From Synergistes sp. (lineage in GTDB: Bacteria > Synergistota > Synergistia > Synergistales > Synergistaceae), in NCBI GenBank assembly GCA_030531745.1, contig JAUNMU010000006.1:1-34797 (forward strand): a stretch of 34,797 nucleotides of DNA, written 5' to 3'. The position numbers and the translations under genes were made by a program. The notes below the pieces were generated by a model, which worked only from the letters and a program-made list of their open reading frames with translations, made no database searches and had not been told where the DNA came from. This document shows, piece after piece, positions 2,298-18,390 of the stretch. How positions within the stretch are numbered: the stretch's first letter is position 1; the number at the start of each line of letters is the position of its first letter.

Positions 2298-2321
2298 TTT
2301 GTGAAAGAGGAGGATAGAAAA

Positions 2322-3620
2322 ATGAAGAAAGTTATTTACTACATCAACCAGTTCTTTGGCGGCGTAGGCGGCGAAGCAGATGCCGACTTTGAGCCTATCG
2401 TAAAGGAAGGTGCGGTGGGACCGGCAGCCGGTTTTAAGGCACTTCTTAAGGATGCCGAGATCACGCACACTGTGATCTGCGGTGACAATGCGATGGCAAG
2501 CCACAAAGATGACTCACTCAAGAAGATCAAAGAACTCCTCAAAGGCGTGGAATTTGACCTCGTTATAGCCGGCCCCGCGTTCACATCGGGACGTTACGGC
2601 GTGGCTTGCGGTGAATTCTGTAAATTTGCGCATGATACGTATGGTGTACAGGCTATCACGAGCATGAACGAAGAGAACCCGGGCGTAGCGCTTTTCCAGG
2701 AAGAGCCCATTTACATCATGAAGGGCAGCCGCAGTGCGGCAAAGATGCGTCAGGACTGCGCACCTGTGGCGGCACTTGCAAACAAGATCATCGCAGGTGA
2801 AGAAATTCTTTGGGCAGACGCCGAAGGCTATTTCTCACACGGCATCAGAAAAGAAGTATTCCTTGACAAACCGGCTGCAGACCGCGTTGTTGATATGCTC
2901 CTTGATAAACTTGCCGGCAGACCGTTTGTGACAGAACTGAAAATAGAGCCGCGCGACAACGTTATCCCGTCAAAGGCCATTGATGACCTGAGCAAAGCTA
3001 AAGTCGCGTTTATATGCACAGGCGGACTTGTACCCCTTGGCAACCCGGACAAGATTCCAGGCGGTACATGCTCAATCTGGAAAACATACGATATATCAAA
3101 CAAAGAGAAGCTTGTCAAAGGCGACTACTATAGTGTACACTGCGGTATCAACACAGACTTCGTAAACGCAAATCCCGAAGTTATGTTCCCGCTCTCTTCA
3201 TTCAGAGAATTTGAAAAGGACGGCACTCTTGGCAAACTTAGCGACTTCTTCTACTCAACGACAGGCAACCTTGCGACACTGAAAGATGCAAGGCGTATGG
3301 GCAGAGAGATAGCGGCCGACATCAAGGCACATGGAATTGATGCTGCGGTATTGGTCAGCACCTGAGGAAGCTGCACACGTTGCGGTGCAACGATGGTAAA
3401 AGAAATAGACCGTGCAGGTATTCCTATCGTCCACATCACCAACCTTACCCCTGTCGCAAAAGTAACCGGCAGTAACCGTATTATCCCCGGAATCGGGCTT
3501 GTATCTCCGTGCAGCGATCCGCTTCTTTCCGATGAAGAGCAGAAGATAATGCAGAAGAATTTCGTTGAGCGTGCGCTTAAGGCAATAACAACGGACGTTG
3601 ACGATCAGACGTTCTTCTAA
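2322..3620 (+). CDS. grdB: Selenoprotein B of glycine/sarcosine/betaine reductase (in-frame TGA = selenocysteine)
   Basis: The catalytic selenoprotein partner of GrdE, 432 residues when TGA 3363-3365 is read as selenocysteine (Sec348). Hallmarks are the N-terminal Y-I-N-Q-F-F-G-G-V-G-G-E, A-G-P-A-F-x-S-G-R-Y-G-x-A-C-G, and the core L-V-S-T-U-G-S-C-T-R-C-G-A-T-M-V-K-E-I. The frame continues uninterrupted through the TGA to TAA at 3620, and the downstream 85 residues are typical GrdB. The start ATG 2322 is set by AGGAGG at 2308-2313 (8 nt spacing); an upstream in-frame GTG at 2301 lies before this ribosome site. It needs SelA/SelB/SelC and, for the full reaction, proteins A and C, none of which are in the window. 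An automatic caller would split it into a 1,044-bp and a 228-bp gene. The paralogue identity (GrdB, GrdF or GrdH) is undecided. Confidence 0.93.
3363..3396 (+). promoter_or_regulatory. Selenocysteine UGA codon and bacterial SECIS hairpin in grdB
   Basis: The TGA at 3363-3365 sits inside the conserved V-S-T-U-G-S-C-T-R-C motif. Immediately downstream is a perfect 6-bp hairpin, CGTTGC (3378-3383), loop GGT, GCAACG (3387-3392). Its position, 12 nt after the UGA, and its short G/U-containing loop fit a bacterial SECIS element recognised by SelB. The hairpin lies in the coding sequence, as usual for bacteria. Confidence 0.85.
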
Positions 3621-3628
3621 ACTTGTGA

Positions 3629-3670
3629 AAATGGGTTTGTGCCGTAAGGCACGGCCCATTTCTTGCTTGA
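3629..3670 (+). terminator. Terminator-like hairpin after grdB
   Basis: Nested stems AAATGGG/CCCATTT (3629-3635 with 3655-3661) and GTGCC-GTAA-GGCAC (3639-3652) lie 9 nt after the grdB stop. The following tract (TTTCTTGCTT) is only moderately T-rich, so termination may be partial, lowering expression of the transport genes relative to grdEB. Confidence 0.6.
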
Positions 3671-3743
3671 AGGAAGAAGGGCCTTCAGGCGGCGCTAAAT
3701 AATCGGATACGCAATTATGATCCGGAGGTAAGCAGCATTTTGA

Positions 3744-14886: not shown

Positions 14887-14998
14887 TCCGGTACAGTTTG
14901 CCGGACAAATACACGCTACGATCGCAATTTATGCCCAACACGGCAATAAAAGCAATTTATACAGCTGCTATGATTTGTATATATAATATTATAGTTGA

Positions 14999-15028
14999 TT
15001 GACAGGCATTGCCAAAACATAATAGAAT
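14999..15028 (+). promoter_or_regulatory. Promoter of the type III antitoxin RNA
   Basis: TTGACA at 14999-15004 and TAGAAT at 15023-15028 are separated by 18 nt, a near-consensus housekeeping promoter. The expected transcription start, about 7 nt after the -10, falls at 15035-15036, exactly where the tandem repeats begin. Confidence 0.75.
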
Positions 15029-15035
15029 ATACACA

Positions 15036-15117
15036 AGAGGTTACGAAGCCTACCAAAATCGTTGTAATAGAGGTTACGAAGCCTACCAAAATCGTTGTAA
15101 TAGAGGCTGCGAAGCCT
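15036..15117 (+). ncRNA. toxI: ToxI-like type III RNA antitoxin: about 2.5 tandem 33-nt repeats
   Basis: Two identical 33-nt units (15036-15068 and 15069-15101), beginning AGAGGTTACGAAGCC, are followed by a partial third (15102-15117) with two changes. There are no spacers between units, so this is not a CRISPR array. Repeat length and copy number fall in the range known for antitoxins of the ToxN/AbiQ/CptN families. The order promoter, repeats, terminator, toxin is the defining layout of type III systems. Each unit should be excised by the toxin and fold into a pseudoknot that inhibits it. The third unit can also pair CTGCGAA (15107-15113) with TTCGCAG (15122-15128). Confidence 0.85.
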
Positions 15118-15127
15118 TACTTTCGCA

Positions 15128-15158
15128 GAGGGGCTGTTTATGAACAGCCCCTCGTTTT
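15128..15158 (+). terminator. Attenuating terminator between antitoxin repeats and toxin gene
   Basis: A perfect 11-bp stem, GAGGGGCTGTT (15128-15138) with AACAGCCCCTC (15143-15153) and a TATG loop, is followed by GTTTTA. It lies 20 nt before the toxin start. In type III systems this terminator lets most transcripts end after the repeats, giving antitoxin excess, while read-through makes the toxin mRNA. Confidence 0.88.
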
Positions 15159-15173
15159 ATTGGAGATATGAAA

Positions 15174-15713
15174 ATGCAGAGATGGATTATTGGCAATGAG
15201 AACTATTTGTCTTACCTTAGAAAAACCGAAGACCGGATACCGAACTCAAATTATGGAGAGAGCCATTACAAGCCTTTTTTCGGTGAGTTGTTTTCGGTTG
15301 GTGATTTAGTCTATGTTACGCAGGTATCTTCCGTTAAACCTCGGCATGAAAAATTAAAAAACAGCAAAGATTTTTTCAAACTGTATATATCGTCCGGCAA
15401 AGCAGGAAAGCCGGACGAATTGGTTGCCGTAGTTAATCTTAACTATATGTTTCCCGTTCCGTACAGATTGATAGAATATCTTGAAATGAAGAACATTGAC
15501 CAAGTAAGAGGTTTCGGCAGCGAAGAAGAAAAGACAAAATACATAAATCTGCTCAATAAGGAAATTGAAGCAATCAATGTACTTAGGATTGACACTAAAG
15601 CGCAGAATCTTTACTCGTTTGTAGAAAAATATCCTGAAGCTAAGATCTCTCAGCGTTGTTTTAACTTCAAGTTTCTTGAACAAATAGCATTAAAATATTC
15701 CGATGATCGGTAA
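15174..15713 (+). CDS. toxN: Type III toxin-antitoxin endoribonuclease, ToxN/AbiQ family
   Basis: A 179-residue cytoplasmic ribonuclease. The N-terminus Y-L-S-Y-L-R-K-T-E-D-R-I-P-N and the block K-P-F-F-G-E-L-F at 33-40 are typical of ToxN-like toxins, as are V-S-S-V-K-P-R-H at 51-58 and N-Y-M-F-P-V-P. Lys33, Ser52 and Ser53 fall at the positions of the ToxN active residues (Lys33, Thr52, Ser53, from my memory of the family). The toxin cleaves mRNA and its own antitoxin precursor, and such systems commonly act in phage abortive infection. GGAG (15162-15165) is 8 nt before ATG 15174 and 2 nt before ATG 15168, so 15174 is the better start. It is preceded by the repeat RNA and terminator. The next genes are convergent and unrelated, so the locus is a compact insertion. 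Confidence 0.88.
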   Translation: MQRWIIGNENYLSYLRKTEDRIPNSNYGESHYKPFFGELFSVGDLVYVTQVSSVKPRHEKLKNSKDFFKLYISSGKAGKPDELVAVVNLNYMFPVPYRLIEYLEMKNIDQVRGFGSEEEKTKYINLLNKEIEAINVLRIDTKAQNLYSFVEKYPEAKISQRCFNFKFLEQIALKYSDDR

Positions 15714-15782: not shown

Positions 15783-16955
15783 TTAGTGCGAAATCTCGGA
15801 TTGTTCTATCAAACGCAAGTAGTTTGATATTTTATTGCCCAAGCCGACGAGATCAAATTTCTCAGCACGCTCCCGTGAACGGTTTAGGTAGCGGTCAACA
15901 TTATCTGCCGTTAATAAGCGGTCACTGTCTGCCAACGATTTGGTTATCAATGTGTTTATTGATGGGTGGTAGTGGCTCGTGTCTTTGTATAGTGAAATGT
16001 CATCGGGAAATGCCAGATCCTCAAAGCCATAGACATAAAGATTGTGCAGCGTCTGCGATTTCAGCGCAAAGTAGCGAACGATTTCCCTATGTATGATTGA
16101 TGAGGGAATGTCGTATTGATACCATATCCCGTAACAGATTCTTGAATACGGCGGAAATACGGCGTAGAATTTTGTCTCAGGGTTATCTCTCACAATATTT
16201 ATAAAATAATCGTTGCAATATTTTTTTGCCGCACTTATGAGTTTTGCCATTTTTGCGGCATCATATTCTATGCGTTTATTTTCTTGTATGCTTTTCGTGG
16301 CATGTGTTATGTCACGAAAAGCCTCTATTATCTGACCATTGTTTTTTGCGTCAAACCACTTCTGCAAACCGCCGAACCGCATCATGTGGTCTTGGACATC
16401 ACTCCAGCGTGACGGACAATTATATTCATGATATGCGATGTCCTGTTTATATTCATTATGATACATCACATTCTTGATTATTGTTTTTAGTGCAGAACGG
16501 CTAAAATATATTTTGACATTGTTCGCAATATTGTCATCATACAGATATTGATAATCACTTAAATTGACACCTTTATTAACGATGTCCTGCTTTAAGTAAT
16601 GTGAATCCAATGAGTATATTATGGCTTTTACTTTTTTGTGCGCAAGCAAATACCTTAGTACAAAGCTTCGTTCAAAAATTTTGCCTCCGGATATTGATAT
16701 GTTGGCAAATTTGCAGTGTTTGAATATTTTGTTTGTTTCAATGGCAGAGCTGTTTTCCATCATACTCGTGCCTAATATGTATGAATCAAATTTTGGGTCA
16801 TTGATAGCCGCCAATGCTGAATATCTCATCTCCAATCCCTTTGTCGCCAATATCGGACTGTTGTATAGCACGTGAAATGGATCTAAGGCAATGATCGTAC
16901 CGAAAAAAATTACCGGAAACAATAATATTGTGTAAAAATATTTTTTATATTTCAT
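15783..16955 (-). CDS. SGNH-hydrolase-like membrane-anchored partner of MBOAT acyltransferase
   Basis: A 390-residue protein with one N-terminal membrane helix (about residues 6-24), the rest extracytoplasmic. S-Y-I-L-G-T-S-M-M-E-N-S at about 58-69 holds the GxS nucleophile-type motif, and D-T-S-H-Y-H-P near 325 supplies the Asp/His pair, as in SGNH/DltD/AlgJ-like proteins. It lies 14 nt downstream of the MBOAT gene on the same strand with AAGAGG as ribosome site, so the two are co-transcribed. Such partners complete transfer of acyl (often acetyl) groups to extracellular polysaccharides. The polymer modified here is unknown. Specific family membership is by eye, and sequence between the motifs is divergent. 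Confidence 0.7.
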   Translation of the reverse strand: MKYKKYFYTILLFPVIFFGTIIALDPFHVLYNSPILATKGLEMRYSALAAINDPKFDSYILGTSMMENSSAIETNKIFKHCKFANISISGGKIFERSFVLRYLLAHKKVKAIIYSLDSHYLKQDIVNKGVNLSDYQYLYDDNIANNVKIYFSRSALKTIIKNVMYHNEYKQDIAYHEYNCPSRWSDVQDHMMRFGGLQKWFDAKNNGQIIEAFRDITHATKSIQENKRIEYDAAKMAKLISAAKKYCNDYFINIVRDNPETKFYAVFPPYSRICYGIWYQYDIPSSIIHREIVRYFALKSQTLHNLYVYGFEDLAFPDDISLYKDTSHYHPSINTLITKSLADSDRLLTADNVDRYLNRSRERAEKFDLVGLGNKISNYLRLIEQSEISH

Positions 16956-16969
16956 GGGTTATGCCTCTT

Positions 16970-18390
16970 CTAAAATTGAAAATACAAAAATTCTGATATA
17001 TTGCCAAGCGACATCAACGCGACTGTAATTATAATGCCGGTGATAACAGCAGCGATATGTAAATGATCTGAGTGCAACAATCTATTAGCTATGGTGCCGG
17101 AAGTCGGGGCGTATAACATGACGGCGGCTATTATAAAGATGCCTTTTGCGTACCTTCCCGGAGTATATGCGCTTTCGGTCAATGTTTGGATATTCATTCC
17201 CGCCATGCCCTTGAGTATCTCAGTTGCCTGCGCCACATTGTCGGCTCTGAAAAACACCCATGCGATCACTATGCACACAAAGGTTATGAGATGACTTATG
17301 GGCTTTGGTATATCAAACGGTTTGTGTTCTCGCCATAGGTGGTTTATCGTAAGAAACAGTCCGTGAAGCCCTCCCCATATTACAAATGTCCAGCCTGCGC
17401 CATGCCACAGACCGCCAAGGAGCATTGTCAGCATGAGGTTTATATATCTGCGGAGTTTTCCCCTTCTGTTGCCGCCGAGGGGAATGTAAAGATATTCTTT
17501 TAAGAAGCCGGAGAGGGTGATGTGCCATCTGCGCCAGAAGTCTGTTATTGACGCGGCTTTGTACGGCGAATTGAAGTTTATCGGCAGCTCTATATTGAAA
17601 AATCTGCCAAGGCCGAGTGCCATATCCGAGTATCCCGAGAAATCAAAGTATATCTGAAATGTGTATGAAAGTGCGCCTCCCCACGCTTCTATGAATGTCA
17701 AAGCATGGTCGGCTCCAAAAGCGGCGGCGACCCACGGGGAGAATGTGTCTGCTATGACGACCTTTTTGAAGAGCCCTATGGAAAACAGAGTGATACCTAT
17801 ACAGAGATTTTTGTATGAAAGGCAAAATATACGTTTGTTGTCAAATTGAGGAATCAGCGTATCGGCGAGGACTATCGGTCCTGCTATGAGCTGCGGGAAG
17901 AATGAAACAAAGAGCGCGTAACGGTACAAAGAGAGACGCCCTATCTTACCTTTATATGTGTCAACAAGACATGCTATCTGCTGAAATGTGAAGAACGATA
18001 TACCAAGAGGCAGGAATATATTTTTTGTGTGCCATGATGCGCCGAAAATTGCGGCGATATTCTGTGCGAAGAAGTCAGCGTACTTAAAATATCCGATGAG
18101 AGCAAGGTTGAGGATCACGCCTGCAATAAGATAATATTTTGAACTATAGTCCCCCCCCCCCCGTTTTGCAACAATAGTTCAGCTAAGCGGTTTTGGATAA
18201 GGCAGTTTACCGCTATTGAGCCGAGCAGCAGCAGAAGATAAGGGGGATTCCAATAGCCGTAAAAGAAGAGCGAACAGACAAGAAGCCCCGCAAGAGCCGC
18301 CTGTGTTCTCTTATAATTGCAGAGGGTTCGCCAGATAATATATGTCACCGGCATAAAGAGAAATATAAATTCAAATGAGTTAAATAACAT
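16970..18390 (-). pseudogene. MBOAT-family O-acyltransferase (DltB/AlgI type), split by frameshift in a poly-G tract; possible phase-variable gene
   Basis: Two minus-strand frames make up one MBOAT protein. The first (ATG 18390) ends at TGA 18117-18115 and begins M-L-F-N-S-F-E-F-I-F-L-F-M-P, the usual family start. The second covers the rest to TAG at 16970 and, read upstream, continues as D-Y-S-S-K-Y-Y-L-I-A-G-V-I-L-N-L into the G run. Hallmarks in the second part are Y-F-D-F-S-G-Y-S-D-M-A, W-R-R-W-H-I-T-L-S, Y-I-P-L-G-G-N-R-R-G and G-G-L-W-H-G with the catalytic His. With 12 G the first frame reads four Gly then T-I-V and fails; 10 or 13 G would join the frames into about 473 residues, the normal length. 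It may be a genuine OFF phase, a damaged gene, or a homopolymer sequencing error. It would pass acyl groups across the membrane to the SGNH partner. Confidence 0.85.
18141..18180. repeat. 12-base poly-C/G homopolymer flanked by inverted repeat inside MBOAT gene
   Basis: The plus strand has 12 consecutive C at 18151-18162 (G on the coding strand). It is bracketed by GAACTATAGT (18141-18150) and ACAATAGTTC (18171-18180), which are complementary at 9 of 10 positions. The tract is the longest homopolymer I see in the window and sits exactly where the reading frame shifts. Such tracts are classic sites of slipped-strand mispairing; the flanking hairpin could promote it. Confidence 0.9.

What the first reader, a model, noticed from the sequence alone, without database searches (positions are those of the whole stretch)
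14999..15713. Compact type III (RNA) toxin-antitoxin locus of ToxIN/AbiQ type
A near-consensus promoter, two exact and one partial 33-nt tandem repeats, a perfect 11-bp terminator and a ToxN-like ORF follow each other without gaps. The predicted RNA start coincides with the first repeat. The toxin has Lys33 and Ser52-Ser53 at positions matching the ToxN active site. Gene callers would label the ORF hypothetical and ignore the RNA antitoxin. The repeat sequence is not one I can match to a known antitoxin, so it may be a new specificity group.
Basis: partly seen in the sequence, partly recalled or inferred. Interest (0 to 1): 0.85.

Follow-up and report, generated by a model that had tools for sequence, protein, structure and literature searches.

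The report
ToxIN RNA-antitoxin toxin locus
This is a complete type III toxin-antitoxin locus, an RNA-cutting toxin held in check by a small knotted RNA; it is a known kind of element whose RNA design is shared with gut Bacillota, and several phages carry loose copies of that RNA without the toxin.

Summary
The ORF at 15168/15174-15713 is a ToxN endoribonuclease (Pfam ToxN_toxin E=1.2e-40); its confident AlphaFold model matches all four solved ToxN/AbiQ toxins. Upstream lie a promoter, three antitoxin units and a terminator.

The repeat is not unique. Nearly identical arrays, almost always of three units, precede the closest toxins (41-53% identity) in gut and rumen Bacillota and three phage contigs. 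Across 47 distinct units the H-type pseudoknot is strongly supported: 96% of cells paired, 49 double-sided changes, no slid register comparable. The toxin lies in that Bacillota clade (100/100), away from the other ToxN toxins of its own phylum, so it was probably acquired horizontally.

It is a new member of a known kind: the ToxIN family, with an antitoxin group I found in no Rfam model or searchable paper text.

The unexpected by-product: six phage lineages carry one or two intact units of this antitoxin with no ToxN on the contig, like natural versions of the pseudo-ToxI by which phage PhiTE escapes ToxIN. RNA processing, inhibition and phage defence are inferred, not shown.

The parts
14999..15028 (+). 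Sigma-70-type promoter, TTGACA-18-TAGAAT
   Evidence: consensus match only, but a promoter stands at this place in relatives too
15036..15068 (+). ToxI antitoxin unit 1; stem 1 15038-15041/15048-15051, stem 2 15043-15046/15059-15062 (pseudoknot)
15069..15101 (+). ToxI antitoxin unit 2, exact copy of unit 1; stem 1 15071-15074/15081-15084, stem 2 15076-15079/15092-15095
15102..15126 (+). ToxI antitoxin unit 3, degenerate 3' part but same pseudoknot with compensatory change (stem 1 AGGC/GCCU 15104-15107/15114-15117, stem 2 GCGA/UCGC 15109-15112/15123-15126)
   Evidence: third-unit position matches the three-unit arrays of relatives
15128..15153 (+). Intrinsic terminator between antitoxin and toxin, 11 pairs, followed by T-rich stretch
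15162..15165 (+). Shine-Dalgarno GGAG, 8 nt before ATG-15174
   Evidence: read from the sequence
15174..15713 (+). toxN gene, 179-residue endoribonuclease toxin (alternative start 15168, 181 residues)

Best explanation
A complete type III toxin-antitoxin locus of the ToxIN family. One promoter makes an RNA of three antitoxin units that mostly ends at the terminator, with read-through giving the toxin mRNA, so antitoxin is in excess. ToxN cuts the precursor in the A-rich tail of each unit (probably within UAAUAG) into pseudoknots of about 33 nt, which bind ToxN and block its active site, most likely as a 3:3 ring. When transcription stops, for example in phage infection, the antitoxin decays, free ToxN cleaves mRNA and growth or phage production halts. 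Shown here: toxin family, fold and active-site residues; gene order; the pseudoknot by covariation; membership of a Bacillota-centred clade. Inferred from characterised relatives: processing, inhibition, ring assembly, activation, anti-phage role.
For: Pfam ToxN_toxin 1.2e-40; PADLOC AbiQ; fold match to four ToxN/AbiQ structures from a model with pLDDT 95.8; catalytic Lys33, Ser52, Ser53, Lys55 aligned with ToxN, residues shown to matter in E. coli ToxN (PMC8860590). Gene order as defined in PMC5086642. Pseudoknot: 7 pairs, 96% of cells paired, 6 pairs with double-sided changes, 49 such cells, 0 of 500 shuffles as high, slid registers at most 54% paired and 0.175 in covariation score against 0.439. 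All but one of the close relatives have three units, which fits a trimeric ring.
Against: No expression, processing or toxicity data. Unit 3 has lost the conserved UAAUAG tail and the units have UUGUAAUAG rather than the group's UAUUAAUAG, so processing may differ. Tyr29 of the ToxN active site aligns with Glu31 in the pairwise alignment, though Tyr29 (181-residue numbering) is close by in a gapped region.
Confidence: 0.94

Rival explanations
1. Same biochemistry, but the locus serves mainly as a selfish or stabilising module (addiction) after horizontal acquisition, not as phage defence.
For: Some ToxIN systems (ToxINBt) show no anti-phage effect, and type III loci stabilise plasmids (PMC5086642). 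The locus looks recently acquired: Bacillota clade, gene GC 36% against 47% for the window. No other defence genes were noticed next to it.
Against: Phages carry loose copies of exactly this antitoxin, which suggests that ToxN of this group is met by phages as a threat; no plasmid or integrase genes were seen around it.
Confidence: 0.3
2. A decayed remnant: unit 3 is degenerate and the locus is no longer active.
For: Unit 3 lacks the tail.
Against: Intact ORF with all catalytic residues, two perfect units, compensatory rather than random change in unit 3, intact promoter and terminator. Type III antitoxins commonly end in a partial repeat (2.8, 2.9 and 5.5 copies, PMC5086642).
Confidence: 0.04
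3. A CptIN- or TenpIN-type system rather than ToxIN.
For: CptN is the next structural match (4rmo, E=0.02).
Against: ToxN/AbiQ structures match at 3e-8 to 1e-6 and the sequence profile is ToxN_toxin; units are 33 nt, as in ToxI and shorter than CptI.
Confidence: 0.02

Closest known systems
ToxIN-like loci of gut and rumen Bacillota (L030 Oscillospiraceae MAG, L041 Lachnospiraceae MAG, L038 Ruminococcus bicirculans)
   Same: Same gene order; toxin 44-53% identical; antitoxin unit nearly identical (L041 differs from the window unit only in the 3' tail)
   Different: Window unit 3 is degenerate; many Lachnospiraceae loci have a hairpin leader before unit 1, which the window lacks
ToxIN of Pectobacterium atrosepticum and of E. 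coli (2xd0, 7d8o)
   Same: Toxin profile, fold and catalytic residues; tandem H-type pseudoknot units; terminator between RNA and toxin
   Different: About 32% identity over the toxin; different unit sequence, 33 against 36 nt and 3 against 5.5 units in Pectobacterium; different probable cleavage site
AbiQ of Lactococcus (4glk)
   Same: Fold; serine at the ToxN Thr52 position, as with the catalytic Ser51 of AbiQ (PMC5086642); about three units
   Different: About 27% identity for a clade member; different antitoxin sequence
pseudo-ToxI of phage PhiTE (PMC3475682)
   Same: Phage-borne antitoxin-like repeats without a toxin gene, like the orphan units in L061, L064, L067, L076, L186 and L200
   Different: PhiTE wild type has 1.5 repeats that do not encode a full pseudoknot; here complete units are present, of another specificity group

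Membership tests
Type III toxin-antitoxin, ToxIN family | Toxin homologous to ToxN (profile) | tested here: met
   PF13958 139.7 bits, cut-off 25; AbiQ 1.3e-19
Type III toxin-antitoxin, ToxIN family | ToxN/Kid-like fold | tested here: met
   Model pLDDT 95.8; top four PDB matches are ToxN/AbiQ
Type III toxin-antitoxin, ToxIN family | Active site Lys33, Thr/Ser52, Ser53, Lys55 (ToxN numbering) | tested here: met
   Aligned residues K33, S52, S53, K55
Type III toxin-antitoxin, ToxIN family | Active-site Tyr29 | tested here: inconclusive
   Glu in the pairwise alignment next to a gap; a Tyr lies two residues away and is invariant in close relatives
Type III toxin-antitoxin, ToxIN family | Tandem antitoxin repeats upstream of toxin, separated by a Rho-independent terminator, one promoter | tested here: met
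Type III toxin-antitoxin, ToxIN family | Antitoxin unit folds as H-type pseudoknot | tested here: met
   Covariation in both stems over 47 distinct units; in-array compensatory change in unit 3
Type III toxin-antitoxin, ToxIN family | Toxin is an RNase that processes the antitoxin RNA and is inhibited by it | not testable with these tools
   needs expression and RNA assays
Rfam antitoxin families | Covariance-model match | tested here: not met
   No antitoxin family at any E-value up to 10; only the RNA model is missed, not the system
CptIN | CptN-like toxin and longer repeats | tested here: not met
   4rmo only fifth, E=0.02; 33-nt units
PhiTE-type pseudo-ToxI (orphan phage units) | Antitoxin-like unit on a phage genome without a toxin | tested here: met
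   contigs are fragments, so absence of the toxin is for the contig only
PhiTE-type pseudo-ToxI (orphan phage units) | Neutralises ToxN in infection | not testable with these tools
   needs plaque and co-expression assays

The most novel reading that the evidence does not exclude
Phages of gut and rumen bacteria standardly carry free-standing one- or two-unit RNA decoys matching this antitoxin group. They would soak up ToxN during infection; at least six phage lineages would have acquired or evolved one, making RNA antitoxin mimicry a common natural counter-defence and not only a laboratory escape of PhiTE.
Probability: 0.5. Interest if true: 0.7.

Novelty: new member of a known kind. Interest (0 to 1): 0.42.

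Why it matters
The locus itself adds a ToxIN member, with a well-defined antitoxin group, in a phylum where I found no published type III system (the phylum is probably Synergistota; inferred). The group gives 47 distinct natural units with strong stem covariation, a good data set for ToxI-ToxN specificity. The loose phage units, if they act as decoys, would show that RNA mimicry of a type III antitoxin is a natural and repeated phage strategy, and the sequences to test are now named.

Tried and rejected
Rfam search of 14900-15300 at E up to 10 gave only chance snoRNA matches. A first stem 1 of GGU/ACC, by analogy with Pectobacterium ToxI, was dropped because unit 3 and the relatives support AGG(U/C)/(G)CCU instead. 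MAFFT misaligned window unit 3 in A3 and A4; it was counted as it stood (conservative) and checked by hand. In one search the stem-2 register for units 1 and 2 was off by one; one search corrects it, and the shuffle figure is not used. The loose pattern returned mostly chance hits: 2 of 112 had stem 2 paired in register. Synteny downstream of the AcnX operon could not be compared: no similarity in the short flanks. Blower et al. 2012, the classification paper, is not held. L060/L062/L063 (19.8 bits) match only the 5' part, lack the tail and lie beside a tRNA; they are not counted as orphan units. L197 (10.6 bits) was rejected.

Full report
Observation. Because related loci repeat the same order of elements, the arrangement is not chance.

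The toxin. Pfam ToxN_toxin matches at 1.2e-40, well over its cut-off; PADLOC calls it AbiQ. Lys33, Ser52, Ser53 and Lys55 (179-residue numbering) align with ToxN Lys33, Thr52, Ser53 and Lys55; these line the active site of E. coli ToxN, and Lys33, Thr52 and Lys55 were shown there to be needed for toxicity (PMC8860590). Serine at position 52 recalls the catalytic Ser51 of AbiQ (PMC5086642). The AlphaFold model (pLDDT 95.8) matches 4ato, 7d8o, 2xd0 and 4glk, the solved ToxN/AbiQ toxins, then CptN at 0.02.

The antitoxin. The closest relatives were found in named Bacillota genomes (L030-L046, 44-53% identity), in phage contigs L019 and L020 (43%) and in L069 (41%). Their leaders carry units nearly identical to the window's: in L041 the unit is the window unit with AUUAAUAG for UGUAAUAG at the tail. 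All have three units except L020, which has two. I aligned 48 units (A3) and tested an H-type pseudoknot: stem 1 AGG/CCU, stem 2 ACGA/UCGU. Ninety-six per cent of cells pair; six of seven pairs have double-sided changes, 49 cells in all; no shuffle of 500 reaches this, and slid registers pair at most 54% with covariation scores up to 0.175 against 0.439. Stem 2 occurs as ACGA/UCGU, ACAG/CUGU, ACGG/CCGU, AUAG/CUAU, AGGG/CCCU and GCGA/UCGC. The last type includes the window's own third unit, in which both stems are kept (AGGC/GCCU and GCGA/UCGC) although its tail is lost. So the array holds three pseudoknots, not two and a half. No Rfam antitoxin model matches.

Origin. In a tree of 35 toxins the window falls with the Bacillota and phage loci (100/100), apart from all ten sampled ToxN toxins of its own phylum, which carry other antitoxins. 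Only 12 of 188 genomes of the phylum have ToxN at all. The gene is 36% GC in a 47% window. Horizontal acquisition from Bacillota is the best reading. The relatives were gathered with the window protein as query, so other donors may be unsampled.

Mechanism. From the anatomy and the characterised family (PMC5086642; PMC8860590) the locus should work as given in the best explanation. Processing, inhibition, ring assembly and phage defence are inferred. The cut is probably in UAAUAG, the conserved A-rich stretch between units.

Loose phage units. DNA patterns of the unit, scanned over viral contigs, found complete units with no ToxN on the contig in six phage lineages: L064 (two tandem units), L061=L065=L066, L067=L068 (one and a half, behind a perfect TTGACA-17-TATAAT), L076, L186, and L200 (one unit with UAAUAG on both sides and a terminator after it). 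A sequence-only model of the group (R1) scores L061, L064, L076, L186 and L200 at 27-36 bits, as high as or close to the window's own units (32.5), while the chance hits of the loose pattern score at most 13; L067 scores 22. All seven units keep every pair of the pseudoknot, with double-sided changes among them. Terminase, portal or ribonucleotide reductase genes mark the contigs of L061, L067 and L076 as phage; terminase-like ORFs were read by eye in L186. In L061, L067, L076 and L186 the unit lies upstream of the terminase genes. These are either natural decoys, as evolved by PhiTE in the laboratory (PMC3475682), or relics of lost toxIN loci. Retained pairing, retained cleavage sites and the lack of toxin remnants favour decoys. 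The contigs are fragments, R1 E-values take no account of preselection by pattern, and no activity is shown.

Verdict. A well-supported new member of the ToxIN family; ordinary in kind, with a useful antitoxin group and an unexpected lead in phages.

Noticed in passing
L064:423-487, L061:2660-2690, L065, L066, L067:7809-7840, L068, L076:4047-4078, L186:9583-9614, L200:4830-4862: Complete antitoxin units of the window's ToxI group on phage contigs without ToxN: candidate natural RNA decoys against ToxIN; often upstream of terminase genes.
   Followed up: partly
window 2301-3700: GrdB glycine/betaine reductase selenoprotein: in-frame TGA (Sec355) at 3363-3365 directly followed by a SECIS_4 element at 3366-3403; plain ORF callers cut the gene at 3365.
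   Followed up: partly
L019/L059 (contig IMGVR_UViG_3300027374_000478): A complete toxIN of this group sits on a 159-kb phage contig beside a tape-measure gene and may split it.
   Followed up: no
L031, L033, L034, L035, L037, L039 just before the first unit: Many Bacillota loci have a short hairpin leader between the -10 box and unit 1; window, L030 and L042 lack it.
   Followed up: no
L031, L033, L034, L035, L045 arrays: Within one array units 1 and 3 use stem 2 ACGA/UCGU while unit 2 uses ACAG/CUGU; a regular alternation of unit types of unknown meaning.
   Followed up: no
L060:4525-4547, L062, L063: A CCGGUUACGAAGCCGG motif near a tRNA-Thr-like gene in three related phage contigs matches the 5' half of the antitoxin unit but lacks its tail; possibly another structured RNA.
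   Followed up: partly
L067:10804-10885: Rfam skipping-rope RNA on the same phage contig as an orphan antitoxin unit.
   Followed up: no
L013, L015, L016 (genome G033) and L014 (G034): One related genome holds several ToxN copies, some broken, with intact arrays before broken toxins (L015).
   Followed up: no
L044: Toxin of a near-copy of L035 appears frameshifted (142 aa, altered C-terminus) behind an intact array.
   Followed up: no
window 15783-16955 (-) and 16970-18390 (-): Convergent MBOAT acyltransferase gene with a partner ORF of no Pfam match downstream of the toxin.
   Followed up: no
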